A DNA stretch of 37,918 nt, taken from assembly GCA_025963905.1 (NCBI GenBank), contig JAOPZW010000206.1:1-37918 (forward strand), written 5' to 3'. The translations under genes were made by a program, and so were the position numbers. Positions 11,116 to 37,656 of this stretch are shown piece after piece. The stretch comes from Solirubrobacterales bacterium. Lineage in GTDB: Bacteria > Actinomycetota > Thermoleophilia > Solirubrobacterales > Solirubrobacteraceae. The notes below the pieces were generated by a model that was not told where the DNA came from, searched no databases, and saw only the letters and a list, made by a program, of their open reading frames with translations. The number at the start of each line of letters is the position of its first letter. The stretch's first letter is position 1.

Positions 11116-11447
11116 CGCGAGCCCGGCGTAAGGCTGTCGCCGGCGGTGCTACCTTCAGCGCCGACTGGCACGCTGGCATGGACGCGCTCGACGACAGCGA
11201 CCGCAGAGAGCTCCTCATCTTCGCCGGGCAAACGCTTGAGGGCGCGCAGGACTCGCCCGCCGGCTCGTTCGCCTGCTGGTGGCTCCTGCTGAGAGCGGGG
11301 GAGGCGCTAGACCTGGCTGAGCCTGTCGACCGCCGTCGAGCTTCGCGTTCGATGGCTCGAGCCGCTGCGCGCTGGACGCGGTGTCGACTACGGCGGCGGC
11401 GGCGGCCTGCCCGACAGCCTCACTCCTACTCGTCAAAGCGGCCGTAG
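11112..11447 (+). CDS. Hypothetical protein
   Basis: ATGA overlap with integrase stop; C-terminal half has low-quality composition. Confidence 0.45.
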   Translation: MTRARRKAVAGGATFSADWHAGMDALDDSDRRELLIFAGQTLEGAQDSPAGSFACWWLLLRAGEALDLAEPVDRRRASRSMARAAARWTRCRLRRRRRPARQPHSYSSKRP

Positions 11448-15200: not shown

Positions 15201-16193
15201 CTAGCCGCGGAAGCCAGCCACGGCGGCCCGATCTATGTCGAGCTCGGGCCCGAAGTCGGTCCGCACCACGATCGCACCCGGCAGCAGTTGCTCGACGCGC
15301 GCGACCTCATCATCGTTGAAGACGGTGACCGCGAGCTTCCTGGGCTTGGCCGCCGCGATCGCGCCTACAAGCGCCGGATCGTGGAGGGAGTGCCCGAGCA
15401 CGAACACGTGGTCCGCCTGGTCGAGGGCGGCGCGGAACTGCGACCAGAGGCCGCTGACCGTGGCGTCGTTGGTCGGGTCCTTTCCAGGGTCCGGGTAAAG
15501 CACTACCGGACTCCCGAGGTTCTCCAGGTACGGCTGATCGGCCATGTGGTCACGAACTTGGCCGTCCTTCTCGTACCAGCCCACGGCGCCGTGCAGGTGG
15601 ATCACGGGCGTCACGTCCGTGGCGGTCGATCCGAGTCTTTCGGGCTCAAGGATCGGGACCCGATTCGGTCGCTGCGGGAAGCCGGTGAAGACCTTGCGCC
15701 CGAGGCCGACGAGCGCGCTCTCCGCCGCCCGGTCGTAGTTGGTGGTCGCTACGACTAGTGCGTTCGGGTCGCCAAGCTCACGCAGCAGCTCTTGGTACGC
15801 CGTGGTCGCCCGATTATCGTCCACGCGCTGTTGGCCGAACTGCTCGTAGAGCGTCTCGTTGAGGGCCCTCGTGATGACCCCAAGGCGCTCACCCGTCTTC
15901 CCGCGGGCGACCGTTACCTCTCCGTAGTGATGCCCGGGATTCTGACCGCCGAGTCCCGCGAAGCGCTCCTCTAGGTGCCGTATCTGCTGCCAGCGAAGCA
16001 GGAGCCCGAGCGCTTCCTCGAACTGTTCGCCGGTCATGCCGGGTCCAAGGTGGCACGCGGCGGCTAACTGAGGCTCGCGGCCATCGAGTACCTCGCACAG
16101 CCGGTTAGACCAGTCCGGCATCAGCGGAAGCGGGTCGCTCGACGCTCCGAGCCGGCGGCTCGCCCCGGCACCGGCGATCAAGAGCAGGGTCAC
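15201..16193 (-). CDS. SIR2-family protein (putative NADase)
   Basis: LLIAGAGAS N-terminus, VVATTNYDRAAE, VIHLHGAVGW, VFVLGHSLHDPALVGAI. Confidence 0.9.
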   Translation of the reverse strand: MTLLLIAGAGASRRLGASSDPLPLMPDWSNRLCEVLDGREPQLAAACHLGPGMTGEQFEEALGLLLRWQQIRHLEERFAGLGGQNPGHHYGEVTVARGKTGERLGVITRALNETLYEQFGQQRVDDNRATTAYQELLRELGDPNALVVATTNYDRAAESALVGLGRKVFTGFPQRPNRVPILEPERLGSTATDVTPVIHLHGAVGWYEKDGQVRDHMADQPYLENLGSPVVLYPDPGKDPTNDATVSGLWSQFRAALDQADHVFVLGHSLHDPALVGAIAAAKPRKLAVTVFNDDEVARVEQLLPGAIVVRTDFGPELDIDRAAVAGFRG

Positions 16194-18270: not shown

Positions 18271-18525
18271 ATGAACAATCCACCCACACGCCGTCGTCGG
18301 CTGTTCATGCATCCGGCGACCATGGCCCTCGCCGCCGCGGGATCGAGTTCGGTTGACGTAGCCGCCGTGCTCGGCGTCACGTCCGCGGCCGTGAGCAGCT
18401 ACTTCGCCGGGATCAACCGGCCACACCCGGACCTACCCGAGGCGCTGCGCGAGCTCGTCGGCGCCGACGCGGCGCGGAATGTCCTCGCCCTGATCCCCGA
18501 GCGGGACGCGCAGGGCCCCGCATGA
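18271..18525 (+). CDS. Small HTH (XRE-like) regulator
   Basis: SSVDVAAVLGVTSAAVSSYFAGINRPHPDLPEAL helix-turn-helix; first gene of the replication operon. Confidence 0.7.
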   Translation: MNNPPTRRRRLFMHPATMALAAAGSSSVDVAAVLGVTSAAVSSYFAGINRPHPDLPEALRELVGADAARNVLALIPERDAQGPA

Positions 18526-18600
18526 CCCCCTCAACGACGGACGCCCGCCCCGCGGCACACGGAGCGAGCGTCGAAATGCGTACAGCAGAAAAGAGCAGCG

Positions 18601-18870
18601 ATGACCACTATGGCAGAGCGACCGGACGGGCACCTACTCCGGCCGGGCAGCCCAGGCGGCAAGGCCCTGCGGCCCCCGCCGGCGGGCACCCGGTACAGCG
18701 TGACCAACCTCGGCAGCGGGATTTGCACCGCGTACGACGCCGGGGGTCGCGTGCTGGGGGAGTACCAGCGCTGGGCGCCGGTGTCCGAGAAGGACAAGGC
18801 CCACGCTCGGCAGCACGCGCCGAAGGATGGGCCAATCCGGGTCACCCCGCCGTCCCCGTGGCCGCGATGA
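18601..18870 (+). CDS. Small hypothetical protein (89 aa)
   Basis: ORF overlapping the next gene by ATGA (18867-18870). Confidence 0.65.
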   Translation: MTTMAERPDGHLLRPGSPGGKALRPPPAGTRYSVTNLGSGICTAYDAGGRVLGEYQRWAPVSEKDKAHARQHAPKDGPIRVTPPSPWPR

Positions 18871-19823
18871 CGCGCGCCGAGCAGGCCACGGCCTACCTCG
18901 ACGCGCTGATCTGCGCGGCGCCCGTCGACAGCCACCACCTCGAGCTACGTTGGCGCGGGGACGGCAAGCCGATGCGCTCGGAGTGGTTCGTGGAGCCGGA
19001 CGGACTGCAGCGGGGGGCGAACCCCGCGGCGCTGGCCCCCATCGCGGAGCGGGCGGTAGCGCTCGCCGACCAGGGGGGCGAGGTGTTCGCGGGCGTGGGC
19101 CTGCGGACGCGGGCGGAAGGGACCAAGGACGCGGTCCCCATGCTCGGTCTCGCCTGGGCTGACTGCGACTCCCTCGACGCGACGGCGCGGCTGGGCAGCT
19201 TCCCGTTTCGGCCGTCGATGACCGTGCGGTCCTCGCCCGGCAAGGTCCACGCCTACTTCCGGTTGGAGCAGCCGCACCCGACCGAGGTCGTCGAGGACGT
19301 GAACCGTCGGCTCGCGCTCGCCCTGGGCGCCTGCCCGCATGTCGCGGACGCGGCTCGGATCCTGCGCGTCCCCGGGACCTACCACACGAAGACCGGCCGG
19401 CCTCAGAACGTCAGCCTCTACATGAACCGGCCGACCGTGACGCCGCTGGCGGACCTGTTGACGCTGCCTGCCCCGCAGGCGGCGGCACCCGCACCGACGA
19501 CCACGGGGGCGCCGGTGGCGGGCCCGCGGAGCGACGACCTGGACGACCTGCGGGCGATTCCGGCCACGGTGTACGTCCCGCTCCTGACCGGCCGCGAGGT
19601 TGGCCGGGACGGGAAGGCGTGCTGTCCGGTGCATGGGGGCGGAGCGGAGAGAAGCGCGTCTCTGCATGCCTACCCCGACGCCGAGCGAGGGTGGTTCTGC
19701 TACGGCTGCAGCAAGGGCGGCGACGTCCTGGACCTCGTGGCGCACATGACGGGCCTCGACACCCGTGTCGACTTCCCGCAGATCGTGTCCATCGCGCGGT
19801 CGCACCTGGGGGGCGGTCGCTGA
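18867..19823 (+). CDS. DNA primase: RepB-type/prim-pol core with C-terminal CHC2-like zinc finger
   Basis: LGLAWADCDS...PSMTVRSSPGKVHAYFRLE...AARILRVPGTYHTKTGRP then CCPVHGGGAERSASLHAYPDAERGWFCYGCSKGGDVLDLVAHMTG. Confidence 0.88.
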   Translation: MTRAEQATAYLDALICAAPVDSHHLELRWRGDGKPMRSEWFVEPDGLQRGANPAALAPIAERAVALADQGGEVFAGVGLRTRAEGTKDAVPMLGLAWADCDSLDATARLGSFPFRPSMTVRSSPGKVHAYFRLEQPHPTEVVEDVNRRLALALGACPHVADAARILRVPGTYHTKTGRPQNVSLYMNRPTVTPLADLLTLPAPQAAAPAPTTTGAPVAGPRSDDLDDLRAIPATVYVPLLTGREVGRDGKACCPVHGGGAERSASLHAYPDAERGWFCYGCSKGGDVLDLVAHMTGLDTRVDFPQIVSIARSHLGGGR

Positions 19824-21142
19824 TGAGCGATCTGGACCTCAGCCACCTGCCCGACGACGTGGCCAGCCACCTGCTGTCCAAGATCCCGAACACCTCGACC
19901 ACCGCGAGCAGGGGCGGGGGCGACAGCAGCGCGTCCACCGGCCGACGACTCCAGGTCACCTGGGCCAGCCAGGTCAAGCCCGAGTCCGTCGAGTTCATGG
20001 AGGACGGGCGCATTCCGATCGGCAAGCTCACCGTCCTCGCTGGCGACCCTGGTCTGGGCAAGTCGCAGTACACCTGTCTCATCGCGGCGAAGATGTCGCG
20101 GTCGGCCAGGGTGCTGATGCTCAACGCGGAGGACGACGAGAGCGACACTCTCCGTCCCCGCATGGCGGCGGCCGGCGCGAACCTGGAGAACGTCGGCTTC
20201 GTCAAGATGCGCGACGAGCACGGCGACGACGGACTGGTGCTGCCCGACGACGGCGCCCAGCTGCGCGCCAAGGTGGAGCAGACGGGCGCCACCCTGGTCG
20301 TGGTCGACCCGATCATGGCCCACCTGGGAGGGAGGGTCGACGGGTACAGGGACCAGGACGTGAGGCGAGCGCTCGCTCCGCTCCACAACATGGGCAGCGA
20401 CCTGGGCGTAACGGTGATCGTCGTAGCCCACCTGAAGAAGGGCGCCGAGCAGATGGCGCTCAACAAGATCGGCGGGTCCATCGGCTTCGGGGCATCAGCC
20501 CGCAACGTGCTCGCGTTCGCACGCGACCCCGACGACCCCGACGGCGACCAGGGGGACCGACGCATCCTCGGCCACATCAAGGGGAACAACGGCCGCCTCC
20601 AGGATGCGCAGCTCTACCAGATCGAAACCGCCTGGGACGGCTTCGTGGAGACCAGCCGACTCGTCTACACCGGCGACAGCGAGCAGTCGGTGCAAGACCT
20701 CCTGGCGCCGCCCCAGGTCAAGGCCCCGACGAAGATCGAACTGGCGAAGGAGTTCCTGTCGAAGGCGCTGGCCCAAGGGCCGCGCTCGACGCTCGAGGTT
20801 ACATCTGAGGCTGAGGCTCAGGGTATCTCCGACCGCACGCTGACGCGCGCCCGGGGCGACATGGGCGTCCGTTCGGAGCGGGGCGAGGACGCGAGGTTCT
20901 ACCTCTCGCTGCCGACCTCCGCCAACAGGACCCCTGCCAACCTCCCAGGGGAGAGTGTGGTTGGCACTGGTGGTAGACAAGACACGCTCAGTCTTTCGGA
21001 GTTTGGCTCTAGTGAGCCAAATCCGGAGACCTCCGCCATGTCTGCCATGTCTGCCAACTCTGCCGACCCCCAAGGGGTGGCAGAGGTCCCCGGCCAAGGT
21101 CGACCGATCCCCACGGCGGGCCCCGAAGGGGCGTCGTCGTGA
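19823..21142 (+). CDS. RepA/RecA-like (AAA_25) replicative ATPase
   Basis: GKLTVLAGDPGLGKSQYTCLIAAK Walker A, TLVVVDPIMAHL Walker B, VTVIVVAHLKKG, GSIGFGASARNVLAFARDP. Confidence 0.92.
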   Translation: MSDLDLSHLPDDVASHLLSKIPNTSTTASRGGGDSSASTGRRLQVTWASQVKPESVEFMEDGRIPIGKLTVLAGDPGLGKSQYTCLIAAKMSRSARVLMLNAEDDESDTLRPRMAAAGANLENVGFVKMRDEHGDDGLVLPDDGAQLRAKVEQTGATLVVVDPIMAHLGGRVDGYRDQDVRRALAPLHNMGSDLGVTVIVVAHLKKGAEQMALNKIGGSIGFGASARNVLAFARDPDDPDGDQGDRRILGHIKGNNGRLQDAQLYQIETAWDGFVETSRLVYTGDSEQSVQDLLAPPQVKAPTKIELAKEFLSKALAQGPRSTLEVTSEAEAQGISDRTLTRARGDMGVRSERGEDARFYLSLPTSANRTPANLPGESVVGTGGRQDTLSLSEFGSSEPNPETSAMSAMSANSADPQGVAEVPGQGRPIPTAGPEGASS

Positions 21143-21906
21143 GCGCGCCGACTCGCGCCGCGGGCGCCCGCATCCGACCGCTCGACATGGCTGCGCTGAT
21201 GGCGCAGCCCGAGCACCGGGCCGCATATCGCATCGACCGCTTCGCCCAGGACGGGGCGCTGACCATCCTTGCCGCGAAGGGCGGCAGCGGGAAGTCCTGG
21301 CTGGGGATGGCGGCGTGCGCCGCCGTCCAGGCCGGGGCGCCACTCGCCGGCATCCCGGTGGAGAGGGGGCCGGCCGTCTACGTCGACGCCGAAATGGGCG
21401 GCCGTCAGCTGGCCGACCGCTTCCGGGTGGCGGGGATCCGCGCCGACGCCTTCGGTGTGCTCGACGCCCTGGGCCTCGACATCGGGGCGCCCGGCGGCGT
21501 GGGGCACCTGACCGACGAGCTCCGGGCCACCGGCGCCCGTCTGGTCGTGCTCGACTCCCTGCGCAAGCTCGCCCCGGCGATGAAGGAGAACGAGTCCGAC
21601 GACATGGGAGGGCTGCTGGCCTCGCTGACGCTGATGGCCCGCAGTCTCGGCGCCGCGGTGCTCCTCATCCACCACGCGGGCCACGGCGAACGGTTCACGC
21701 GGGGAAGCTCGGCGATCCGCGACCAGGTGGACGCCCTGTTCGGGCTCGAGCGCGACGGCGACGCCCTGCAGCTGTCCTGCTCCCCGGCGCGCGGCGGCAA
21801 GTTCCGCCTCGACGTCGAGCCCGAGGACCGGCAGCTGCGCCTGGCCGTGGGGGAGACGCCCGGCGTAATCGTGGCCGAGGCACAGGCGCCGGCGGCTGTC
21901 GCATGA
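21139..21906 (+). CDS. Second RepA-like (AAA_25) ATPase
   Basis: GALTILAAKGGSGKSWLGMAAC Walker A, ARLVVLDSLRKLAP Walker B, AAVLLIHHAGHGE, GSSAIRDQVDALFGLERDG; GTGA overlap with previous ORF. Confidence 0.92.
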   Translation: MSAPTRAAGARIRPLDMAALMAQPEHRAAYRIDRFAQDGALTILAAKGGSGKSWLGMAACAAVQAGAPLAGIPVERGPAVYVDAEMGGRQLADRFRVAGIRADAFGVLDALGLDIGAPGGVGHLTDELRATGARLVVLDSLRKLAPAMKENESDDMGGLLASLTLMARSLGAAVLLIHHAGHGERFTRGSSAIRDQVDALFGLERDGDALQLSCSPARGGKFRLDVEPEDRQLRLAVGETPGVIVAEAQAPAAVA

Positions 21907-22567: not shown

Positions 22568-22896
22568 GCGGTCCCACGCTCCAGGCGCTCGACGGCGGAC
22601 GCGACCAAAGCGCCCCCGGGCCCGCGATCGTGGAGCTCGCCGCGGCCGTCGCGAAGGCGCTGGACGATCCCGCGTTCGCCGCCTCGGTCGCCCACTTCCG
22701 CAAGCGGCCGGTCACCGTGCTCTCCGAACCGCTGCTCGACGCCGACGCCGTGGCCGAACTGCTCGACATCCCCGCGAGGACGGTTCGCCAGTACGCGGCG
22801 GAAGGGCGCCTGCCGTCGCGCCAGCTGGGCAAGCACATCCGCTTCGTGCGGGCCGAAGTCGCCGACGCCCTAGAGCGCGGCCTCATCGGCGCGTAG
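22564..22896 (+). CDS. Excisionase-like HTH (MerR/HTH_17) protein
   Basis: LLDADAVAELLDIPARTVRQYAAEGRLPSRQLGKHIRFVRAEVADALERG, excisionase-family HTH; GTG start. Confidence 0.88.
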   Translation: MSGPTLQALDGGRDQSAPGPAIVELAAAVAKALDDPAFAASVAHFRKRPVTVLSEPLLDADAVAELLDIPARTVRQYAAEGRLPSRQLGKHIRFVRAEVADALERGLIGA

Positions 22897-24815: not shown

Positions 24816-25436
24816 ATGGAGAGCATCGCCGTCTTCTTCGACTGGCAGAACGCCTACAAGGGTGCGCGCAAGGCGTTCGGTCTTCAAAACCAGCCGAACG
24901 AGTTCGGGAACTTCAGCCCGCTGCGCCTAGCGAAGATCCTCGCTGCCGGGAACGACAGGGGCAGCGACGGCCGCCTCGTACGCGTGGAGGTTCACCGCGG
25001 CCTACCGTCGTCGGCGCGTGACCCAGTCGGGTACGGCGCCAACCGCCGGCAAGCGCAGGCATGGGTTACCGAGGCGCCCGAGCTTGTCTTCCCTCGTCTG
25101 CGACCGCTTCGCTATCCCGCAGATCACGAGGAAAGCCAAGAACCAACAGAGAAGGGTGTCGACGTGAATCTCGCGCTTGGCGCGGTCGAGCGCGTCCTGA
25201 TGAATCAGTGCGACATCGCGATCCTGTTCTCCCATGACAGCGATCTGGCGCCGGCGCTCGAAACGATCTGCCGCGTCGTGAGCCACAACCACGTAGAGAC
25301 CGCGTCTTGGCGCAGCAGCAGCTTTCAGGGCCGCATCCCGAAGACCAGGGGTGTCTTCAACCACGCGGTTGGCTGGGAGGCCTTCCAGCGGGTCGCTACG
25401 CCCGTGAATTACGCCCGCCAAGGCAGTAAGGCTTAG
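24816..25436 (+). CDS. NYN-domain (LabA/PIN-like) ribonuclease
   Basis: IAVFFDWQNAYKGA, KGVDVNLALGAVE, AILFSHDSDLAPALE: acidic NYN motifs. Confidence 0.88.
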   Translation: MESIAVFFDWQNAYKGARKAFGLQNQPNEFGNFSPLRLAKILAAGNDRGSDGRLVRVEVHRGLPSSARDPVGYGANRRQAQAWVTEAPELVFPRLRPLRYPADHEESQEPTEKGVDVNLALGAVERVLMNQCDIAILFSHDSDLAPALETICRVVSHNHVETASWRSSSFQGRIPKTRGVFNHAVGWEAFQRVATPVNYARQGSKA

Positions 25437-25510: not shown

Positions 25511-26545
25511 TCAGTCTGCTGCTGCTGCTTCTGCTTCTGCTTCTGCTGCGTCTTTGCTGGCCTGGTAGCCCTCACGGTCAAGAACGAACCGGATCGTGTT
25601 CTGCGTCTGCTGCTGGATCAGCACGTAGTACCGATCGACCGCGAGCTTTGCGAGAAGCCGCTTGGCCGTGCCGAGCGGCAGGTTCAGCTCCTCGTCGACC
25701 TCTCGAAAGTGCACGAGGACGCCCTTGAAGTTCCGGCTATCGAACCCAAACAGGCCGCGCCAGGCAGGGTTCAACCAGTCATCGTCCAACACCTCAGCGA
25801 GCTCGTCTTCCGAGTACGCCTCGTACGGCCCGTTGTAGACAGCACCCGAGCGTAGGTCGCTCTCCGCGACGGTGAGGTCGCCGTAGCGAGGCAGCTTCGC
25901 CTTGATCGTGGCGTAACGGAAGCCTTTGAGGTTTCCGAATTCGAATAAGTCGACCAGCGTCTGGAAGACGAGCCGTGTCTCAGAGGCCTTGCCGAGCGAC
26001 ATAGCTTGCAACCGACTGAGCGGTTCAGGCAGGTCAGTCTTGTCGACCTCGGGAACGCATACCGGCAGGATGCGGCCTTCGCCCTCCTCCATCTTGGCCC
26101 ATGACGCGCCAACCTCGAACCAGATCCAAGGACGGTTGAGCGACACCGGCGTAATGAGGACGATCACCGCGCTGGCCTTGCGCAGCTTGTCGTTGATATT
26201 CGCCAGCCAGTCGGCGCCAGGGGAAACCTTCCCAGGGACGCTCGTGGCGAACACATCTACCCCGTTCGCGAAGATGCGAGTGATCTCGTCGTGGATCACC
26301 CGAACGATCGGTTCGTCCGTCGCCGCGTGGCTGAGGAAGACGGTTGGCTTCTTGATCCCTGGGCCGGGCACAGCGCGGACGAGTGTAGGCGCAGAGGCGG
26401 TCGTGCTCGGCCAGCGGCGCAGGTCGAACGCCCAGGAGCGGACCGCAGACCATGACCATGGCGTCTGCGGCCCGCGCCGGGCAATGGGTTCGCGCCCCTG
26501 CTGGTCCGGCGGTGACGCGAACGCCGCAGCAAGGTAGCCAGCCAT
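25511..26545 (-). CDS. TIR-domain protein with C-terminal wHTH-like region
   Basis: PTVFLSHAATDEPIVRVIHDEI, ASAVIVLITPVSLNRPWIWFEVGASWAKMEEG (catalytic Glu context), ILPVCVPEVDKTDLPEPLSRLQAM; start M at 26545 inferred. Confidence 0.88.
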   Translation of the reverse strand: MAGYLAAAFASPPDQQGREPIARRGPQTPWSWSAVRSWAFDLRRWPSTTASAPTLVRAVPGPGIKKPTVFLSHAATDEPIVRVIHDEITRIFANGVDVFATSVPGKVSPGADWLANINDKLRKASAVIVLITPVSLNRPWIWFEVGASWAKMEEGEGRILPVCVPEVDKTDLPEPLSRLQAMSLGKASETRLVFQTLVDLFEFGNLKGFRYATIKAKLPRYGDLTVAESDLRSGAVYNGPYEAYSEDELAEVLDDDWLNPAWRGLFGFDSRNFKGVLVHFREVDEELNLPLGTAKRLLAKLAVDRYYVLIQQQTQNTIRFVLDREGYQASKDAAEAEAEAAAAD

Positions 26546-26614
26546 CACGGCGCGCTGGACGGATGACCGGCTCCTTGCGCCCAACGGCGCCTGTGTCGGG
26601 GGAAGCGACCCTTC

Positions 26615-27673
26615 ATGTGTGATGCCGTGCCGACCGCAATGCAAGAGGATCCCGCCATGCGCGGCGTCGGCTCCATCGAACTCAGCTGGCCCGAAGACCC
26701 CCGCGCTCGAGAGCAGATGCGTGGTTTCGTCGCCGAGCTCGCCGATTGCCGCAGCGTCGACGATGCCTTCGTGGCCGGGATCACGGACGACCCAGACGGC
26801 GAGGAGCGTCACCAGCGGCCAGACCTAGCCATGAAGGCAACGGCGCGACTGCGAGTTTGGGGCAGCGACGACGACGCGGTCTCTCGTGCGTTTGACCTTG
26901 TCGTCTGGCTCGCCCGAGACGTCCTGGGTCGGCACTTTCCGGCACTGCCCGTCATGGTGCCGGAGAGCGTCTCCGGGGGTGCCGACCTTGCGCGAGCGCT
27001 CGACCCGGCACTCCGGTCCGCGGAAGAGGCCGCACGCGAGGCAGCCCGGATCGATGAGCGGGCCGACACAGCGCGGGCGCACCACTGGCTGTTGGAAAGC
27101 GCGGTTCGCTCCGCCAGGTACCTGGGGTCCATCCCGGGACGCGTCAACATCACGACGTACAGGCCGAACCGCCAGTCGAACCCCCTCTATGCATGCGAGA
27201 AGGTCGCGTCGCGCTGTGGCGAGACGTTCCTCTACGCAGTCGCTCTCGAACCGTTGGCTGCCGCGGCACTGGAGCGTCTCGGACACCCCGACTTCGTCAC
27301 CGCAGGCACCGCCCGCCGTGGACGGGAGGCGCTGTTCGCCGCCGGCATCACCGAGTTTGGAGCCGGCCTCGAGCGGCTTGCCATTGCGCTCGTGGACGCG
27401 TACGACCGCGCGAGCGCCGCAGGCCCGGTGCCCGCTTCGACCGCGCTCGCCGCGGCTGAGGCTGTGACGCCCCGCGAACACGATGCGGTTGCGTTGGTCC
27501 GCGAGAGTCCGCAGCTGAGCGACCGGCAGTTCCCGCCCACAGCCACCACTTTTGCGGCCGCCGCCGAAGAGGTCATGGCTCGTGCGGTCGCCGAGATCGC
27601 CACCCACCTTCACAGCCAAAGTGCCGCCCGAGAGATCGCAGCCGTCAGCGTCGACCGGGCACCCGGGCGCTAG
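26615..27673 (+). CDS. Hypothetical protein (352 aa), divergent to TIR gene
   Basis: Long ORF; alternative ATG at 26657; no family recognised. Confidence 0.8.
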   Translation: MCDAVPTAMQEDPAMRGVGSIELSWPEDPRAREQMRGFVAELADCRSVDDAFVAGITDDPDGEERHQRPDLAMKATARLRVWGSDDDAVSRAFDLVVWLARDVLGRHFPALPVMVPESVSGGADLARALDPALRSAEEAAREAARIDERADTARAHHWLLESAVRSARYLGSIPGRVNITTYRPNRQSNPLYACEKVASRCGETFLYAVALEPLAAAALERLGHPDFVTAGTARRGREALFAAGITEFGAGLERLAIALVDAYDRASAAGPVPASTALAAAEAVTPREHDAVALVRESPQLSDRQFPPTATTFAAAAEEVMARAVAEIATHLHSQSAAREIAAVSVDRAPGR

Positions 27674-28870: not shown

Positions 28871-29321
28871 ATGCGTGTCAAAGGTATCGCCGTGGCACAT
28901 GTCGCCGTGGCGCTCGTCCTCGTCGGCCTTCTACTGACCGGGGCGGCGACCGCCGCAACGCTCATCACCGGACGACAGATCCAGGACGGCACCATCACGG
29001 GCGCCGACATCAGGGACCACTCGCTGACCGCGAAGGACTTCCGCGGCAACCTCACGGGCCGGCCCGGTCGGCGGGGCGACAGGGGCCGCTGGTGTGACGA
29101 CCATGACCATCCTCAGCGCCGACACGACGCTGGGCGCCGGGGGCACCGGCACGGCGTCCGCGACATGCCCGGACGGGCGGCCCTACCTGGCCGGCGGCGC
29201 GATCATCCGCAGCGGCCAGGTCGACACCGAGCAGGTCGCGCCGAGCGACAACGGCGTAACCGTCACCGCGCACGCCGCTGACCCGACCACGTTCGCCGCC
29301 TACGCGGTCTGCACCGTCTAG
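28871..29321 (+). pseudogene. Collagen-like surface protein, frameshifted (paralogue of 13211-13795)
   Basis: MRVKGIAVAHVAVALVLVGLLLTGAATAATLITGRQIQDGTITGADIRDHSLTAKDFRGNLTG in one frame; GPVGGATGAAGVTTMTILSADTTL...ASATCPDG...AYAVCTV in the +1 frame. Confidence 0.75.
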
Positions 29322-29914
29322 AAGCCGACGGTATCCACCCACAGCTTGCGGTTGGCGAACGTCCCCGTGGACGGGCCGGCGCTCACGTTGTACTGCAGCT
29401 TGAATGTGTGGCTTCCGGCGGCCAGGAAAGCGCCGGCGACGATCAGCCCGGAGACGATCTGCGCGGACGTCGTCGGCGAAGCGCTTGCGCTGCTAACGAC
29501 CAGTGACGTCGCCGCCCCGTCGACCATCAGGGTTGCAACCGAGCCGGGCCCGCCGCCGTTGTTCGAGAGGTCGCACTGAACGCCGACGATCACTAGCCCG
29601 TTCGTCGGCACGGTCACGGTCAGGGACGGCCCCACGGTCGCTAGGTCGACCCGTGGCACGCTCGCCGTCGTCTCCGGCGTGGCGACCTGAGCGAAGCCGC
29701 GGCGAGTGATACCGCCGGCCGTGATGCCGAGCATGTCCGCCAGCGCTGCGGCGATGTCCACCGCCTGAATAGAGCCATCCGCGATGTTAGTGCTGTCCAG
29801 GCCGCCGTTGACGAGCGCGAGGATCTGACTGAGGCAGGTGGGTATTTTGGCTTCCTCAGTGCTGTCGGGGGCTCCGACAATAGGTAGCGACGGGTTGATA
29901 AGGGCCATGGTCAA
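29318..29914 (-). CDS. Fibre/appendage-like virion protein (putative)
   Basis: Beta-rich C-terminal domain (GLVIVGVQCDLSNNGG...GSHTFKLQYNVSAGPSTGTFANRKLWVDTVGF), ATGA-coupled to the upstream tail-like gene. Confidence 0.6.
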   Translation of the reverse strand: MTMALINPSLPIVGAPDSTEEAKIPTCLSQILALVNGGLDSTNIADGSIQAVDIAAALADMLGITAGGITRRGFAQVATPETTASVPRVDLATVGPSLTVTVPTNGLVIVGVQCDLSNNGGGPGSVATLMVDGAATSLVVSSASASPTTSAQIVSGLIVAGAFLAAGSHTFKLQYNVSAGPSTGTFANRKLWVDTVGF

Positions 29915-31413
29915 TCCTTCCTGGGACTGGCGTTTATGGTGTAGCCATCGACTTCAAAGTGGTCATCGGTGGCGTTATAGAAAGTGAACGACCACGAGCG
30001 CGCGACGCCCAGCGTGTAGAGCCAGCCCTCGCCGATCTGCCCGCCACCGCCGAACGTTCCCTGCAAGCCCCCGAAGGTCCCAGCGCCTCCGAACAGCTTG
30101 TCGTTCGGTGAGAAGTTCACCCCCGACGCCTCTAGCGCCCCGTTGAAGGCCGCATAGTCCGTCGCGACGTACACGTCCATCTTCCCGCGGGCATCGATGT
30201 GGACCTCGTTGACGCGCTTGCGCAGGTTCGGGGCGCCGAACGCGTGAAACGGGCCCGACCAGTACGACTCGAAGATCGTCCCGTTGTCGCGAATCTCGCC
30301 GTCCTTGAACATGTGCCAGATGTCGCCCGTGCCGGTCACCAGGCCCATCAGGTCCGGGTCGGCGCCGCGGTCCCACGTCGCCAGCTGGGCGACCGTCGGC
30401 GAGTGGATCCACCAGGAGTTGAGCTCCGTGTCGTAATCGAGGATCAGCTGGACGCCGCTCACCTTCGCCGACATGTAGTAGTGGCCGTTGACGTAGGCGG
30501 CCGTGACGTTCGCCAGGTCCGGATCCGTGATCTGGTCGAGCGTCGGCTGGATCGACTCGCCGATCCGCCGCACGGTGCTGCCGTCAGTGATGTGGACCCC
30601 GAACTGCGGATCCAGAAAGAACGTCCCCTCCGGGGTGGCGACCACGCTGCGCGGCGAGATCGTCCCGATGTTGTCGGTGAACTTGCGGTTCGCCGACGTC
30701 TCCGAGTTGTACACCGACCAGATGCCGCGCTCCTTGAACACCAGCAGGTAGCTGCCGGTGCTGCGCAGCGCGGTGATCGGCAGGCCGTCGTCCGGGTTGA
30801 ACTTCGTCACGTTCGCGGCCGGCCAGCCCGTCGGGTCGCCCAGGCTGGACCAGAAGATCGAGTACGGCGTCGCCGCGACCCCGGCCACCCACAGCGTGTT
30901 GTCGTGGTAGGCCATCAGCGTCCCGTTCGGCAGCGTGCCGCTCACCGCCGTCCAGGTGCCTGTCCCGGCCAGGGTGCCGTCCGTGCGGCGCGGAGTGTCG
31001 GTGCCGTTCATCCCGTACGCCGGGCCCTGCGCCCCGATCACCGGCATCCGCAGGAACGTCCACGGGGCCGTCGTGGACACCGACGCGGCGGCCAGCAGCT
31101 GGGTGACCGCGTAGTTGCTGGCGATGGCGACCATGCCGCCCGCGGTGCTCGAGCAGACCGCGAACGACGAGCTGCCGTTGCCGACGATCGACAGATCCTT
31201 GTACGTCCGGGTCGCGTCGTTCACCAGCCGCAGGCAGCCGTTGCGCTTGCTGACGTTGCCGCGGTGACGGCTCACCACGTTCAGCAGGCCGCGCGACTCG
31301 CCGCCCCACCACTTATGGCGGTAGAAGTACGGCTCGATCAGGCGGTACGGACCGTCGGCGGTGTTCAGCCCGCCACCGAAAAACCCGAACTCGGATGGCG
31401 TGCCCCTAGCCAA
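29911..31413 (-). CDS. Podovirus-type tail nozzle/stabilisation-like beta-propeller protein
   Basis: LLNVVSRHRGNVSKRNG, MAYHDNTLWVAGV...IFWSSLGDPTGWP, ITALRSTGSYLLVFKERGIWSVYN, VATPEGTFFLDPQFGVHITDG: repeat pattern of gp12-like tail tubular/propeller proteins. Confidence 0.75.
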   Translation of the reverse strand: MARGTPSEFGFFGGGLNTADGPYRLIEPYFYRHKWWGGESRGLLNVVSRHRGNVSKRNGCLRLVNDATRTYKDLSIVGNGSSSFAVCSSTAGGMVAIASNYAVTQLLAAASVSTTAPWTFLRMPVIGAQGPAYGMNGTDTPRRTDGTLAGTGTWTAVSGTLPNGTLMAYHDNTLWVAGVAATPYSIFWSSLGDPTGWPAANVTKFNPDDGLPITALRSTGSYLLVFKERGIWSVYNSETSANRKFTDNIGTISPRSVVATPEGTFFLDPQFGVHITDGSTVRRIGESIQPTLDQITDPDLANVTAAYVNGHYYMSAKVSGVQLILDYDTELNSWWIHSPTVAQLATWDRGADPDLMGLVTGTGDIWHMFKDGEIRDNGTIFESYWSGPFHAFGAPNLRKRVNEVHIDARGKMDVYVATDYAAFNGALEASGVNFSPNDKLFGGAGTFGGLQGTFGGGGQIGEGWLYTLGVARSWSFTFYNATDDHFEVDGYTINASPRKD

Positions 31414-31864
31414 GGTGATCGCCCCAGGTGCGGCCAGCCAGCGCGTCGCGCGTGGTCGAGTAGTTCAGGCCCAGGTCGGCGGCCAGGCGCGCGGGGATGG
31501 CGCCCTCTGCGTGGCGCCGGCGAATCTCGCCGACGATGTCGACGTCCAGCCAGCGCGCGGCGTTGCGGCGGCGCAGTTCGCTCTGCGGGAACGGGGTTTG
31601 GCAGTCGGGGTTGACACAGAGCCGGGAGTGCGCGCAGTGATCGAGAAGAACCTCGGAGGGGAGGGGCCCGTGCTTGCGCTCGAAGTAGACGCGGGCGGCT
31701 GAACGCCCCCGGTCCGGGCCCCCGCGCTCCTCCGCGTAGCCGGTCCCATTGACGGCGCGTTGCCAGATCCAGCAGCCGCGCTCGTCGACGAGGTAGTCGG
31801 CCGCGGTGGGTGGCGTCTCGGGCTCGCTGGGCGCTGCGGTGGACGTGTTCGTGGTGGTGCTCAC
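31406..31864 (-). CDS. HNH endonuclease-like protein
   Basis: GCWIWQRAVNGTGYAEE...RVYFERKHGPLPSEVLLDHCAHSRLCVNPDCQTP, phage HNH_3 pattern; GTG start at 31864. Confidence 0.85.
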   Translation of the reverse strand: MSTTTNTSTAAPSEPETPPTAADYLVDERGCWIWQRAVNGTGYAEERGGPDRGRSAARVYFERKHGPLPSEVLLDHCAHSRLCVNPDCQTPFPQSELRRRNAARWLDVDIVGEIRRRHAEGAIPARLAADLGLNYSTTRDALAGRTWGDHLG

Positions 31865-31871
31865 CCGATCG

Positions 31872-31910
31872 AGATTGGCCCCGGTGCCGATCCAGGCGGC
31901 ATGCACCCAA
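31872..31910 (-). promoter_or_regulatory. Shared 39-bp leader motif, copy B
   Basis: 34/39 identical to 37173-37211; ends 7 nt upstream of the HNH GTG. Confidence 0.7.
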
Positions 31911-31941
31911 ACTCGATCGGCGTCCGGGCGAAGATGGGGGC

Positions 31942-32373
31942 ATGGAGACAGCAAGCACGAACACACACGCCACGACCGGCCCCTTCGGTGGCAGCGACAC
32001 CTTCGGCGGGAACGGCACCTTCGGCGGCGCAACCACGTCCACTCCGACCGGGGGGCCGACGCGCAACTTCGGCGAGCGTGTCGGCCAGGTCGGCGGCACG
32101 GTCAGCACCACGGCCAGTACCCGCACCACGACGCGGGGATGGATGCGGGAGCAGGAGGCCGCCGCGTACATCGGGTGTGGCCTGCCTCACCTGCGGCGCC
32201 TCAAGGCCGACGGCCTGCCCTACCACCTGGTGGACGGCGATCCCGAGCTCCCGGTGTACCTGGTCAGCGAGATCGAGGAGTGGTGGCGAAACCAGCGCCG
32301 GCGCCCGCTCGGGTATCCGAGGGGGCCGCGTCAGCCTCGCTACCGGCGGCGGGACAAGGCGGCGGACGCATGA
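31942..32373 (+). CDS. HTH_17-like DNA-binding protein with N-terminal TFGG repeats
   Basis: GPFGGSDTFGGNGTFGGAT N-terminus; MREQEAAAYIGCGLPHLRRLKADGLPYHLVDGDPELPVYLVSEIEEWW. Confidence 0.75.
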   Translation: METASTNTHATTGPFGGSDTFGGNGTFGGATTSTPTGGPTRNFGERVGQVGGTVSTTASTRTTTRGWMREQEAAAYIGCGLPHLRRLKADGLPYHLVDGDPELPVYLVSEIEEWWRNQRRRPLGYPRGPRQPRYRRRDKAADA

Positions 32374-32696
32374 GCCTGGGAGACGCGGTCGGCGCCTTCG
32401 TCGAGGCCGACGACGTCGAGGTGTGGATCCCGAATCACCGCGTGAAGTCGCCGCGCGACCTGATCGAGCGCATCCGCTCCGAGGTCAACCGGCTCACGCC
32501 CCTTGTCGAGCATCTGCACAGCGGGCGCCCGGCGCTCTACAGCAGCGAGGCCGGCGCGGTCGCGGTCGAACTGATCCTCCTCCTGAACGAGCTCGGGGAC
32601 GTCCTCGGCTACGACCTGCTGGGCCAGCTGGAGGACCAGTACGCCGCGGCCATTGCTGCGGCCAGCGCACTGGCCCCCGACGCCGCCAACGACTGA
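32370..32696 (+). CDS. Hypothetical protein (108 aa)
   Basis: MSLGDAVGAFVEADDVEVWIPNHRVKSPRDLIERIRSEVNRL...; ATGA overlap with the HTH gene. Confidence 0.75.
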   Translation: MSLGDAVGAFVEADDVEVWIPNHRVKSPRDLIERIRSEVNRLTPLVEHLHSGRPALYSSEAGAVAVELILLLNELGDVLGYDLLGQLEDQYAAAIAAASALAPDAAND

Positions 32697-32741
32697 CGCC
32701 GCGGGGGGCGCCCGTCTATGGGCGCCGCTACGGTGCGCCAC

Positions 32742-32909
32742 ATGAAACGGGCGCTCCTGGTCGGACTGCAGGTTGCGGTGTGGCCGTTCTACGCCGTCGC
32801 GTTCCTGCTCGCCAGCGGCCTGCTGCTCGCGCTCGGCGGCGCGGTCCTGTTCGTCGGCCTGACCTACCTGCTGCAGGCCCTCCGCTGGCTGGCCCAGCTG
32901 CCGCTCTAG
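32742..32909 (+). CDS. Small membrane protein (holin-sized, unassigned)
   Basis: MKRALLVGLQVAVWPFYAVAFLLASGLLLALGGAVLFVGLTYLLQALRWLAQLPL; two TM segments. Confidence 0.6.
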   Translation: MKRALLVGLQVAVWPFYAVAFLLASGLLLALGGAVLFVGLTYLLQALRWLAQLPL

Positions 32910-32924
32910 CGCCCCGCTGGGGAT

Positions 32925-35900
32925 TCAGCGCAGCGACGGCAGCGGGGGCAGCGAGGGCAGCGGCGGCACCGGAGGGACGGGCGGGAGATTGGGGAGCGCG
33001 CCGGACTTGAGGGCCTGGTCGGTGGTGACCGTGCTGCCGCGGCGCGCCTTGGCCGCCGCGATGTTCTGCTTCCCCTTCTCGCCGCCGGCCGGGAGCAGGA
33101 ACTCCCGCAAAACCTGCCCGATGCCATGGCCCTTCTCGGCCAGGCCGGGGCTGCCGGTCCCGGCGGGGAACCACAGCGACGAGTCGCTCGTCTGCCGGCC
33201 CTTCAGGAGGACGCGCTCGGCGGCGCGGTCGTAGGGGCTGATCTTCATGAACTCGGCGAGGGCGATGCGCAGGCGATCGGCGGCGCTCAGGTCGCTCGCG
33301 TGCTGGACGTACTGCGTCGAGCCGCCCACCGTGTACATCTGGTCGAACGCGACGTTCTTGCCGACCACCTGGTTGATGACGATGGACGCCAGGGGGCCCA
33401 TCATGCTGACCGCCGACTGCGGCCCCTCGAACTGCAGCGCGTTGAAGAACGGGTTGAGCCTGGCCGCGGCGAACTTCCGCCCGCCCTGGTCGTAGTAGTT
33501 GCCGAGCTCCCACGCCGGCACGTCGCCACCGAAAATCTGCTTGAGCTCCTCGGCCTCAAGGTGACCCAGCTGCAGCAGGATGGACGACATGATCGGGTGC
33601 TCGACGGGCATCGTGTAGAACGCCAACCGCAGGCTGAAGCGCAGGAAGCCGTAGAACATCGTCGCCCGGCCGAACACACGACGCTCCTTGGTCGTGTAGG
33701 TGGTCCAGTCACCCAGGAAGTCGTGGACCGCCTTGGCGTTCTTCTCGAACGTCTTCCCCTCGCGCATCACCTCGCGCATCAGGTCCGCGGGGTCGGTCAG
33801 GGTGAGCGTGTGGGCGATCCGCTTCTGCATCGCCAGGATGGTGCTCGCGTTCTTGCCCATCTGCTCGTATGCCGCCCGCTTCGTGCGGTTGTAGAAGATG
33901 GCGCGGCGGAAGAAGTTGTTCTGCGCGTTGTCGGCGCGGAAAATGAGGTTGAGCGGATTGCCCGCGTGCGCCTTACGGTAAAAGGCCGTCGACTTCATCG
34001 CACGGTAGGCGTTCACCAGGCGGCTGTTCGATGCGGCGCCCAGGTGGCGCTGGTCGTCGTACCAGGTGTGGACGCCGATGTAGGGCTCAATCGCGCTGCG
34101 CTCCGACTGTGAGAGCGTGCGCCACCAGCGCTGCGCCTTGATCGCGTCCACCGGACCAACGCCGGCCAGCCCGGTCATCATCGCGTTGGACGCGATCTGG
34201 AACTGCAGCCAGCCGGGGTTTCCCAGCAGGGTGCGCGAGACCTTGCCCTTCGCGATGTCGTAGGACCGCGCGATGGTCCCCGACGGGCGCAGGTCGGCGT
34301 GGATCTCCTCGTACACCGCCCGCGGGACCACCGACCACCCGGAGGTGCCGTGGAAGTCCTGCGGCAGCGTGGCGAGGCGGCTGGCGTCGAACGCCGAATC
34401 GGACAGTGCGTCCTGAATGTGGCGGGACTCGAACGTCGGGTCCTGAATATTGACGTCGCCGCCGCCCGCGTTCTTGTCGGCCTCGTGGCGGGCGGTCCGG
34501 TAGCGGCCGGGGTTCCAGAAGGCGACCGAGTCGGGGTGGATGCCCCGGCGGTCCAACTCGTCGCGCAGGGCGTCGAGCGTCATGTCCCGCAGGTCGGGCA
34601 CGGTGTGGCGCTCGAACTCGCTCGAGACCAGGTTCCAGTTGTGCTTGCGCTTGATCCCCTTCTGGAGGCTCAGGAGGTGCGCTTCGGGGCTGCTGTTCTC
34701 GCGGCCGGTGCGGTGGAGGGCGCCCGTGTAGCGCTTCGTGCCGGCGACGGCCTTCGTGCCGCCGAGCGCGAAGGCGGAGAACACGCCCATCGGCGCCTTC
34801 TCCGACGGGAAGTAGCCGGGCGTGTCCAGGCCCTCCTTCTGTGCCCTGCGGGCGAAGGCGGCGATGTGCTCGGCGGTGATCGCGCTGACCGGGACGCGAC
34901 GACCCGCGACCTCGTACCCGCCCTCGCGCTCGATCTTGCGCGCCATAGCGGCGTCGTCCTTGGCCGCCCTGAGCGCGGCGGCAGCCTTGTCGACGGCCGC
35001 CTTACGCCGCAGTGCCTCCGCCTGGACCTTCTCCGCTCCGCGCAGCGTGGCCGACGGCTTGCGAGACAGGATCGGCGGGCGGACGATCTTGCCCTCCGCG
35101 TCGGTGGCTGACGCCGACAGGCGCTTGACGGCCGCGGCCTTCGACGCCTTGAACACCTCGCGGGCTGACTCCAGGTGGCGCTCGGCTCGGGCGGCGCGGG
35201 TCTCGATGGCGTGGCGCTCGTCGGTCGTCCACTGGTCGGGGTTGCGGTGCGCGTTGCCGTGGGCGGCCTTGGCGGCCCGCATTTCGCGCTGGGCCTCGCC
35301 GAGCTCGCGCGACGCCAGGACATACGCCTCGTCCTTGCGGAGCATTTTCGTGTCGGCCTGGGTGGTGAGCACCTCAGCACGGCCCTGTGAGCGGCCAGCA
35401 GGGCGCTCGTGGCGGGCTGCGGCGCCCTGCAGCGACTGGTGGGCTGCCTCGGCCTTCCCGACCGCCTGCCGGGCCTCTGTGACGCCGGCCTTGGCCTCCG
35501 CGCCCGTGAGCACCCGCGCTTCGCCCAACAGCTCCGCCTGGGCGGCATGGCGCCGGCGCATGGCGGCATCCGCGGAGACGCCGGGATCCTCATGTCCGAT
35601 CTTCGCCGCGCGCTCGCCCTCGTCCCTGGCGACCTGCGCCAGCCTGGGGGTGAACGCCTGATCGGCGTGGTCGATCAGGAACTGGATCTCGGGGATCTCG
35701 TTCTGGCGCTTCGGGATGCTCCTGCCGGTCGCCGCCTCGTGCTCGACGCGGGCCTTCGTGACGTTCTGCAGATGGGTGGACAGCCAGGTGCGCGCCGCCT
35801 CTGGGGTGCGGATGCCGAACTGCACCGCGTACTTGAACGCCCGGCGCTCGGTCCCGTTCAGCGAGTCGACGTTCTTGCGGGCGGCCTTCTGCTCGCGGTG

Positions 35901-37163
35901 GCCCTCGGCACGCATGGCGGCCATGCGTGCGCCCCTGTCCTTGGCAACCAGGCGGCGCTGCGCCCGATCGGTCGCACCCGGGCGGATGTGCGTGACCTCG
36001 CCGGCGACCTGCGCCTGGCGGACCTCGAGCGGGGCTGAGTCCTTGGCGGCGCGACGGGCCTGGACGCGAGCGCGCCCGGCGTCGCGCACCGCCCCCGCGA
36101 CGTTGCGGGCGAGGTTCGGGTGGATCGGCTGCTCCTTGACGGTGTCGCCAGAGACGCGGAGCGCGGGGCGCGACGTGGCCACGCGCTCCGCGGTCTTGCC
36201 GAGCTTGCCCGCCTCAGCCAGGCCCTGGGCGGTGCGCCCGACCGCGGCGCCGTTCACGCCCGCCACGGTCGCCAGGTCAAGCACCTCCGGGGCCGCGCCC
36301 TCCTTCTTGATCCGGTCGCGGAACTTCTGCGGGTCCTTGATGACGTCGCCGTAGCGGCGGTTGACGTCGGCGACGACGCCCTTCGCGGCCTTCTCCGGGT
36401 GGGCGCCCGCGTAGATGAGCCCGGCCGGGATGGAGACGATCGCCTCGCCGAGTCCCTTCGCCGTCTTCGGCAGCACCGCGCCCGGATCCTCGATCGCGGC
36501 CTTGGCGGACTGGTAGGCGGAGGCGCCGAGCGTCGGGAGGATCTTGCCGGGGAGCTCGGCCGCCTTGTCGAGCGCGCCGGCCTTCTTGAATCCGGCCTCC
36601 TGCAGCTGCTGGGGGTCCGTGAGAAAAAGATCCGACTCGCTCGGCTTGTGGGCCGCCTGGCGCTGTGCGGACTGCGCGGTGTTGAAGCGGTCGACGGCCT
36701 TCTGGAACCGCGAGGTGCCCGGCACGACGCCCAGCTGACGCAGGCGCTCGACGCTCGCCTCCTGCTTGCCCAGCGGGCGCCCCGTCTTCATCAGGAGGCC
36801 GATGTGATGGTCAATCGCCGCGCGAGTGTCCGCGTGCAGCTGCTTGTCATTGGCCTCGAAGCGCCCGGTCTTCTTGTTCAGGACGTCGAGGAGCGCCAGG
36901 GGGCGCTGCTGGGGCGCTGCGGGCATCGTCGAGCCTGCGGGGTGCCGCACCTCGGGCGGCAGCCCCGGCTGTTTGACCGGAGCCGACGACACCTGTGCCC
37001 GGGCCTGCCGGACCGCCTCGGCCCGCTTGCGGTTGAGGGCGTGCCCCACGGCCACCACGGCGTGCTGCTCCTTGACGGCCGGGGACGGGGCCGCCGGGCG
37101 CCGGCCAGGCGAGGGCTTCGGCTTGCTGGGCTGCTTGGCGCCGTTGGGGTCGTCGGTACGCAT
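32925..37163 (-). CDS. Very large phage ejection/internal virion-like protein (LPD38-like C-terminal region)
   Basis: ~1412 aa; Ala/Lys/Arg-rich coiled-coil middle, C-terminal FRRAIFYNRTKRAAYEQMG...FLGDWTTYTTKERRVFGRATMFYGFLRFSLRLAFYTMPVEHPI...LEAEELKQIFGGDVPAWEL pattern; start ATG at 37163 preferred over the ORF-track start. Confidence 0.7.
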   Translation of the reverse strand: MRTDDPNGAKQPSKPKPSPGRRPAAPSPAVKEQHAVVAVGHALNRKRAEAVRQARAQVSSAPVKQPGLPPEVRHPAGSTMPAAPQQRPLALLDVLNKKTGRFEANDKQLHADTRAAIDHHIGLLMKTGRPLGKQEASVERLRQLGVVPGTSRFQKAVDRFNTAQSAQRQAAHKPSESDLFLTDPQQLQEAGFKKAGALDKAAELPGKILPTLGASAYQSAKAAIEDPGAVLPKTAKGLGEAIVSIPAGLIYAGAHPEKAAKGVVADVNRRYGDVIKDPQKFRDRIKKEGAAPEVLDLATVAGVNGAAVGRTAQGLAEAGKLGKTAERVATSRPALRVSGDTVKEQPIHPNLARNVAGAVRDAGRARVQARRAAKDSAPLEVRQAQVAGEVTHIRPGATDRAQRRLVAKDRGARMAAMRAEGHREQKAARKNVDSLNGTERRAFKYAVQFGIRTPEAARTWLSTHLQNVTKARVEHEAATGRSIPKRQNEIPEIQFLIDHADQAFTPRLAQVARDEGERAAKIGHEDPGVSADAAMRRRHAAQAELLGEARVLTGAEAKAGVTEARQAVGKAEAAHQSLQGAAARHERPAGRSQGRAEVLTTQADTKMLRKDEAYVLASRELGEAQREMRAAKAAHGNAHRNPDQWTTDERHAIETRAARAERHLESAREVFKASKAAAVKRLSASATDAEGKIVRPPILSRKPSATLRGAEKVQAEALRRKAAVDKAAAALRAAKDDAAMARKIEREGGYEVAGRRVPVSAITAEHIAAFARRAQKEGLDTPGYFPSEKAPMGVFSAFALGGTKAVAGTKRYTGALHRTGRENSSPEAHLLSLQKGIKRKHNWNLVSSEFERHTVPDLRDMTLDALRDELDRRGIHPDSVAFWNPGRYRTARHEADKNAGGGDVNIQDPTFESRHIQDALSDSAFDASRLATLPQDFHGTSGWSVVPRAVYEEIHADLRPSGTIARSYDIAKGKVSRTLLGNPGWLQFQIASNAMMTGLAGVGPVDAIKAQRWWRTLSQSERSAIEPYIGVHTWYDDQRHLGAASNSRLVNAYRAMKSTAFYRKAHAGNPLNLIFRADNAQNNFFRRAIFYNRTKRAAYEQMGKNASTILAMQKRIAHTLTLTDPADLMREVMREGKTFEKNAKAVHDFLGDWTTYTTKERRVFGRATMFYGFLRFSLRLAFYTMPVEHPIMSSILLQLGHLEAEELKQIFGGDVPAWELGNYYDQGGRKFAAARLNPFFNALQFEGPQSAVSMMGPLASIVINQVVGKNVAFDQMYTVGGSTQYVQHASDLSAADRLRIALAEFMKISPYDRAAERVLLKGRQTSDSSLWFPAGTGSPGLAEKGHGIGQVLREFLLPAGGEKGKQNIAAAKARRGSTVTTDQALKSGALPNLPPVPPVPPLPSLPPLPSLR

Positions 37164-37172: not shown

Positions 37173-37211
37173 AGATTGGCCGCTGTGGTGATCGAGGCGG
37201 CATGCACCCAA
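37173..37211 (-). promoter_or_regulatory. Shared 39-bp leader motif, copy A
   Basis: AGATTGGCCGCTGTGGTGATCGAGGCGGCATGCACCCAA; ends 9 nt upstream of the large gene's ATG. Confidence 0.7.
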
Positions 37212-37605: not shown

Positions 37606-37656
37606 CATCAGCTTCCCAAGCTGAGGGTCGCGAGTTCGAGCCTCGTCCGCCGCTCT
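37606..37656 (+). repeat. attR-type core direct repeat (51 bp tRNA-Gly 3' fragment)
   Basis: Exact copy of 9152-9202. Confidence 0.95.

What the first reader, a model, noticed from the sequence alone, without database searches (positions are those of the whole stretch)
29318..37163. Tail/ejection genes without capsid, portal or terminase: possible tail-encoding satellite
The minus strand encodes an HNH, a podovirus-type tail-nozzle-like beta-propeller, a fibre-like protein and a ~1412-aa ejection-like protein, all intact. I could find no major capsid, portal, terminase, scaffold or lysin gene between the att sites. Known satellites usually encode head-side or packaging-redirecting functions and take tails from a helper. 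This arrangement would be the reverse: bring your own tail/ejection apparatus and borrow a head, so it could retarget a helper's host range. The alternative is a decayed prophage, but the tail ORFs are unbroken and still organised in coupled operons.
Basis: partly seen in the sequence, partly recalled or inferred. Interest (0 to 1): 0.8.

Follow-up and report, generated by a model that had tools for sequence, protein, structure and literature searches.

The report
Satellite-like island carrying podovirus tail-tip genes
A 28-kb DNA element in an actinobacterium carries anti-phage genes and the tip and DNA-ejection parts of a short-tailed phage but no head or packaging genes, so it may be a phage parasite that fits its own tail tip onto a helper's head, although a rearranged prophage remnant is not excluded.

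Summary
Between a 51-nt att duplication in tRNA-Gly(CCC) (9152-9202 and 37606-37656) lies a 28.45-kb element. It has an integrase, a primase, two AAA_25 ATPases, several defence genes and, on the minus strand, a P22 gp10-type nozzle, a short fibre and a ~1412-aa ejection-type protein. No capsid, portal, terminase, head-tail adaptor or lysin gene was found.

Homologous nozzles occur in three prophages and several IMG/VR contigs, in the order capsid-adaptor-nozzle-fibre-...-ejection. The window departs from this: the ejection gene lies on the other side of the nozzle, a plus-strand mini-operon lies between them, and both tail units begin with the same 39-nt leader. The int/primase/ATPase core has its sister in an island without virion genes, not in these phages. 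The nozzle shows no excess loss at conserved sites.

This favours a satellite-like element that acquired part of a podoviral tail over a simple prophage deletion, but it is a single instance and nothing shows mobilisation. Only nozzle, fibre and one ejection protein are present, not a whole tail. Vibrio PLE satellites were recently shown to build chimeric tails, so the concept has precedent; a podoviral version with its own fibre would be a new variant.

The parts
9152..9202 (+). attL core, 3' half of intact tRNA-Gly(CCC) 9128-9201
   Evidence: 51-nt identical repeat with 37606-37656; left flank syntenic with genome G170 up to and including its tRNA-Gly
37606..37656 (+). attR core (truncated tRNA copy)
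   Evidence: the right host flank continues on contig C443, part of which aligns near the right end of the insertion in G170
9733..11115 (+). tyrosine integrase
   Evidence: Phage_integrase 3e-23; 46% identical to the integrase of the tail-less sister island in G005
11433..13081 (-). two-gene candidate defence system PDC-M02B (11433-12551) and PDC-M02A/DUF4365 (12548-13081)
   Evidence: PADLOC 1e-51 and 1e-27
15201..16193 (-). SIR2-like defence effector
   Evidence: SIR2_2 1e-6; PADLOC SIR2 2e-9
16283..17836 (+). type IV (Mrr) restriction enzyme
   Evidence: Mrr_cat 1e-30; PADLOC mREase_IV 1e-103
18522..19823 (+). primase (RepB-primase/CHC2)
   Evidence: 37% identical to the primase of the G005 island; no match in 50,697 phage records
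19619..21142 (+). AAA_25 (RepA/DnaB-like) ATPase; true start probably further downstream
   Evidence: AAA_25 4e-25
21139..21906 (+). second AAA_25 ATPase
   Evidence: 4e-30; 56% identical to the one in the G005 island
22732..22896 (+). excisionase-type HTH (end of ORF 21940-22896)
   Evidence: HTH_17 2e-9; excisionase family 1e-7
24816..25436 (+). NYN-domain protein
   Evidence: NYN 4e-7
25511..26812 (-). TIR-domain protein (start uncertain)
   Evidence: TIR_2 6.5e-15
29318..29914 (-). short tail-fibre-like protein, overlapping the end of the nozzle gene
   Evidence: phrog_7565 minor tail protein 9e-17; N-terminus shared with the post-nozzle fibres of related phages
29911..31413 (-). podoviral tail nozzle (P22 gp10 / Sf6 gp8 / T7 gp12 type)
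   Evidence: homologues in three prophages and several IMG/VR contigs
31406..31864 (-). HNH endonuclease, first gene of the nozzle unit
   Evidence: phrog_826 6e-14
31872..31910 (-). 39-nt leader repeat, copy 1, 7 nt before the HNH start codon
   Evidence: only two copies in the genome
31941..32373 (+). divergent excisionase/regulator-like gene next to leader copy 1
   Evidence: phrog_66 7.5e-5, residues 95-182 of ORF 31810-32373; no Pfam hit
32370..32909 (+). two further small genes (32370-32696; membrane-type 32727-32909), function unknown
   Evidence: no family hit
32925..37163 (-). large ejection-type (internal virion) protein, 1412 aa
   Evidence: homologous by sequence and synteny to 1498-, 1505- and 1697-aa podophage proteins
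37173..37211 (-). 39-nt leader repeat, copy 2, 9 nt before the ejection-gene ATG
   Evidence: 34 of 39 identical to copy 1

Best explanation
This is a non-conjugative, satellite-like integrative element in tRNA-Gly(CCC), with a core of integrase, primase and AAA_25 ATPases and anti-phage cargo, which acquired part of a podoviral tail: the nozzle, its docked fibre and the large ejection protein. Proposed working: when a related podophage infects or is induced, the element excises and replicates with its own primase/ATPases. The two tail units, tagged by a common 39-nt leader and probably controlled by the divergent excisionase-like regulator, are expressed. The element's nozzle and fibre then assemble on the helper's portal and adaptor, and its ejection protein enters the helper head. 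The resulting chimeric particles carry the element's tip and host-recognition fibre. Shown: gene content, att sites, homologies, rearranged order, unique shared leader, conserved nozzle. Inferred: helper dependence, timing, regulation, chimeric assembly and packaging.
For: Complete att-bounded element without head genes. Nozzle fold and podophage homologues. Where the neighbourhood is preserved, phage order is capsid-adaptor-nozzle-fibre-internal proteins-ejection; the window has ejection / plus-strand operon / HNH-nozzle-fibre, which one deletion from that order cannot give. A 39-nt leader precedes both tail units by 7 and 9 nt, occurs only twice in the genome and has no counterpart among the repeats of three related prophages. 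Core genes match a sister island in G005 around which no virion gene was found (integrase 46%, primase 37%, ATPase 56%), not the podophages. The nozzle differs at 5 of 51 otherwise invariant columns, the same as the G165 prophage (5 of 51); phages range from 1 to 14. The window's ejection protein scores better against the G453 phage protein (4e-22) than those of two other phages do (8e-11, 1e-5). GC3 of tail genes exceeds that of core genes (0.924 vs 0.874, p 4e-7), consistent with a separate origin. PLE satellites make chimeric tails from their own and helper parts (PMC12987554).
Against: Single instance: among 232 genomes of the order the nozzle occurs in four, and the other three carry full prophages. 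The partial tail set lacks the adaptor, other internal proteins and transglycosylase. No small-terminase, capsid-size or packaging-redirecting gene was identified in the element. No helper prophage of this type was found in the host assembly (assembly 88.6% complete). At least one cargo gene near the tail block looks frameshifted. The test for constraint is coarse and would miss recent loss of function. The link between leader and regulator is proximity only.
Confidence: 0.45

Rival explanations
1. Composite remnant: a podoviral prophage and a separate defence-carrying integrative element used the same tRNA-Gly; the prophage lost its head, packaging and lysis genes and was rearranged, leaving three open tail genes because the decay is recent.
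For: The tRNA-Gly site is a hotspot, occupied by another insertion in G170. The tail genes lie together beside attR. The tail set is incomplete. A frameshifted cargo gene lies nearby (about 28.9-29.3 kb).
Against: Needs deletion of the whole head region plus repositioning of the ejection gene while keeping three unbroken ORFs; both surviving units carry a 39-nt leader not seen among repeats of related phages; nozzle conservation is not reduced.
Confidence: 0.38
2. Anti-phage decoy: the nozzle, fibre and ejection proteins are expressed to poison assembly of related podophages (defective tips), as part of a defence island, rather than to carry the element.
For: The element is rich in defence genes; tail assembly is a known target of element-encoded defence (Tai systems, PMC11364771; Rta, PMC12987554).
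Against: A decoy would not obviously need a full-length ejection protein together with a fibre, and I know of no tail-targeting defence that is itself a structural homologue (own knowledge).
Confidence: 0.1
3. Assembly or binning chimera joining phage and island sequence.
For: The host genome is a 512-contig assembly, 88.6% complete with 5% contamination.
Against: One contig carries host flank, attL, the element, attR and host flank; both flanks correspond to the same locus in G170.
Confidence: 0.04

Closest known systems
PLE satellites of Vibrio cholerae (chimeric tails, PMC12987554)
   Same: Integrated element that encodes a partial tail pathway without the rest of the tail and mixes it with helper tail parts (shown for PLEs, proposed here); anti-phage function
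   Different: PLEs supply a tape measure protein, tail assembly chaperone and baseplate hub for a contractile tail and keep the helper's fibres; here the parts are a podoviral nozzle, fibre and ejection protein. Homology to PLE proteins was not tested and mobilisation is not shown
Capsid-forming PICIs (cf-PICI)
   Same: Satellite-like anatomy (integrase, regulators, primase-type replication) with structural genes of one half of a virion
   Different: cf-PICIs encode capsid, portal and terminase and borrow tails; this element is the reverse
MulchRoom/MiniFlayer satellites of Streptomyces (PMC10690885)
   Same: Actinobacterial satellites; MiniFlayer has its own tail fibre and a podovirus-like look
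   Different: They encode a full head and packaging set and lack replication genes; this element has replication genes and no head
Podoviral prophage of Paraconexibacter antarcticus 02-257 (NZ_CP098502) and relatives
   Same: Homologous nozzle (about 35% identical), fibre N-terminus and large ejection protein
   Different: Complete with terminase, portal, capsid and adaptor; different gene order; no shared replication genes
Integrated island in genome G005 (same family)
   Same: Sister integrase, primase and AAA_25 ATPase
   Different: No tail or other virion gene recognised around it

Membership tests
Phage satellite (general) | Integrated element with its own integrase and replication genes, bounded by att sites | tested here: met
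Phage satellite (general) | Lacks a complete virion gene set | tested here: met
Phage satellite (general) | Mobilised in particles by a helper phage | not testable with these tools
   needs induction or infection and particle sequencing
PICI / cf-PICI | Capsid, portal and terminase genes (cf-PICI) or terminase small subunit / capsid-redirecting gene (PICI) | tested here: not met
   no such PHROG hit among coding-type ORFs; the 150-ORF scan shows none in its 25 most-matched families. A divergent small gene could escape profiles
PLE | PLE gene content (tmp-tac cluster, capsid scaffold, SviR) | not tested
   no search with PLE proteins was made
Complete podoviral prophage | Terminase, portal, capsid and adaptor together with the tail | tested here: not met
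   tblastn of all proteins of two related prophage regions hits only nozzle, fibre N-terminus, ejection protein and integrase, plus three chance-level matches
Tailocin | Self-sufficient tail particle (tube/sheath, or complete short tail with connector) | tested here: not met
   no adaptor, tube or sheath gene found
Integrative conjugative element | Relaxase or FtsK/TraB-type transfer gene | tested here: not met
   no such family among the ORFs scanned with Pfam
P22 gp10-type nozzle | Nozzle beta-propeller fold | tested here: met
P22 gp10-type nozzle | Gene directly after the head-tail adaptor gene | tested here: not met
   true for the phage homologues but in the window an HNH gene precedes the nozzle

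The most novel reading that the evidence does not exclude
A phage satellite that inverts the cf-PICI plan: it supplies the receptor-binding and ejection end of a short-tailed virion (nozzle, fibre, ejection protein) under its own leader-tagged regulation, and takes head, connector and packaging from a podophage helper, thereby changing which cells its particles enter.
Probability: 0.33. Interest if true: 0.8.

Novelty: new variant of a known kind. Interest (0 to 1): 0.58.

Why it matters
Satellites were long thought to act only on heads and packaging; chimeric tails were first shown for PLEs in 2026 (PMC12987554). A podoviral element carrying nozzle, fibre and ejection protein would show that satellites can also swap the host-recognition and DNA-delivery end of a virion, a direct route to changing transfer range. 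It would also give a testable case in Solirubrobacterales-type hosts, whose phage biology is little studied.

Tried and rejected
Simple deletion derivative of a podophage: rejected as the sole account because the order is changed and the core is unrelated. Helper prophage in the same genome: none found with related capsid or terminase profiles or Terminase_6N. Leader repeat as an RNA structure: folding z-scores -0.45 and +1.75, no support; a viral-contig scan with its first 16 nt gave six hits that were not followed. First nozzle model, from four sequences, was too poor to use (pLDDT 40). Close relatives of the ejection protein: none in INPHARED or by pattern scans; a whole-order search failed twice on the server. 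Solved-structure search by sequence profile gave nothing significant. Replication genes in viral contigs and phages: no primase match, only distant helicase matches, mostly to actinophages.

Full report
What is there. The window is a whole contig (C41) of a 512-contig assembly; relatives with homologous tail genes include Paraconexibacter antarcticus, placed in the same family by the genome tool. A 51-nt identical repeat, the 3' half of tRNA-Gly(CCC), bounds 9203-37656. The left copy lies in an intact tRNA; the right copy is only the 3' half, although ARAGORN calls it a tRNA. In genome G170 (single contig) the window's left flank aligns at 70-82% nucleotide identity up to that genome's tRNA-Gly, and part of the right flank (contig C443) aligns about 19 kb further on, beyond another insertion that contains integrases. 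The att assignment is therefore sound and the site is an integration hotspot.

Gene content. Core: integrase, RepB/CHC2-type primase, two AAA_25 ATPases and an excisionase-type HTH. Cargo: PDC-M02A/B, SIR2, a type IV Mrr restriction enzyme (PADLOC 1e-103), a NYN protein and a TIR protein. Tail: fibre 29318-29914, nozzle 29911-31413, HNH 31406-31864, ejection-type protein 32925-37163.

Tail identity. The nozzle matches virion families at 1e-10 to 1e-11. Its model from 10 sequences (pLDDT 67, pTM 0.70) matches the tails of Pa223 (8e-19), VP1 (4e-17), P22 gp10 (6e-14) and Sf6 gp8 (9e-13), with T7 gp12 further down. Full-length homologues lie in prophages of P. antarcticus (G165), G110 and G453, each with terminase, portal and capsid genes recognised by profile or by homology, and in IMG/VR contigs L059-L065, where portal, scaffold, capsid or adaptor genes sit upstream of the nozzle wherever the contig reaches that far. 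The fibre's first ~45 residues match the fibre that follows the nozzle in these phages, and its C-terminal half matches a minor tail protein family. The 1412-aa protein matches the large protein at the end of the same operons, in G165 next to a transglycosylase-type gene.

What is missing. tblastn of all proteins of the G165 and G110 prophage regions against the whole window hits only nozzle, fibre N-terminus, ejection protein and integrase, apart from three short chance-level matches. PHROGs scans of coding-type ORFs found no head, packaging or lysis family other than the nozzle's own families. A scan of 150 six-frame ORFs lists none among its 25 most-matched families; 27 further families were not displayed, so this part is not exhaustive. 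The adaptor that directly precedes the nozzle in the phages is also missing, as are the other internal proteins and the transglycosylase.

Why not a simple deletion. In the phages the order along transcription is capsid, adaptor, nozzle, fibre, internal proteins, ejection protein. Here the ejection gene comes first, beside attR; then a plus-strand mini-operon (an excisionase/regulator-like gene with a phrog_66 match at 7.5e-5, and two small genes); then HNH, nozzle, fibre. Both minus-strand units start with a 39-nt leader (34 of 39 identical) ending 7 and 9 nt before the start codon. It has two copies in the genome and no counterpart among the repeats of three related prophages. One copy lies between the HNH gene and the divergent regulator-like gene, which suggests, without proof, common control. 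The core genes are closest to an island in G005 (integrase 46%, primase 37%, ATPase 56%) around which no virion gene was recognised, and the primase has no match in phage records.

Are the tail genes alive? In a leave-one-out test over eight nozzles, the window's differs at 5 of 51 otherwise invariant columns; the seven phage sequences differ at 1 to 14. This argues against long decay but would miss recent loss of function. No close relatives were available for dN/dS. Tail GC3 is higher than core GC3 (0.924 vs 0.874) and near that of the host genes (0.907), consistent with separate origins of tail and core; the fibre alone (0.84) does not share this.

Mechanism. My preferred account (0.45) is a satellite-like element that fits its own nozzle, fibre and ejection protein onto a related podophage's head and connector. 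Nothing shows induction, packaging or transfer; no related helper was found in the host assembly; and it is one instance (nozzle in 4 of 232 genomes of the order, the other three being full prophages). A composite remnant (0.38) is nearly as likely. A decoy role is possible (0.1).

Literature. PLEs of V. cholerae encode a tape measure protein, tail assembly chaperone and baseplate hub and assemble chimeric tails; the authors call them the first satellites known to do so and report predicted tmp genes in unrelated satellites (PMC12987554). cf-PICIs encode heads and borrow tails, and the Streptomyces satellites encode heads, one of them with its own fibre (PMC10690885). I found no report in the searched library of a satellite carrying a podoviral nozzle, fibre and ejection protein, but most subscription papers and all preprints are missing there. 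Hence: new variant of a known kind, if functional.

Noticed in passing
window 28860-29321 (+): A secreted collagen-like protein of the type intact at 13211-13795 appears split between two frames near 29.07-29.10 kb: a broken gene or a sequencing error in a GC-rich repeat.
   Followed up: no
window 13211-13795, 27677-28162, 28860-29321: Three secreted-type proteins within the element appear to share a C-terminal pattern; seen by eye only.
   Followed up: no
window 11433-17836: Dense defence cargo: PDC-M02A/B, SIR2 and a type IV restriction enzyme in one stretch, with a TIR gene at 25511-26812.
   Followed up: partly
L051 10202-10273 and following (G170): The same tRNA-Gly(CCC) locus in a related genome holds a different ~19-kb insertion with integrases; one ORF of the scanned G170/G005 set has a weak terminase small subunit match (1e-6).
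   Followed up: partly
window 26615-27673 (+): 352-aa protein without a family hit, overlapping the TIR ORF 25511-26812 on the opposite strand; the TIR start is probably further downstream.
   Followed up: no
L047 633-1055 (G453 phage contig): Array of repeats with a 12-nt period in the phage region beyond the ejection and transglycosylase-type genes.
   Followed up: no
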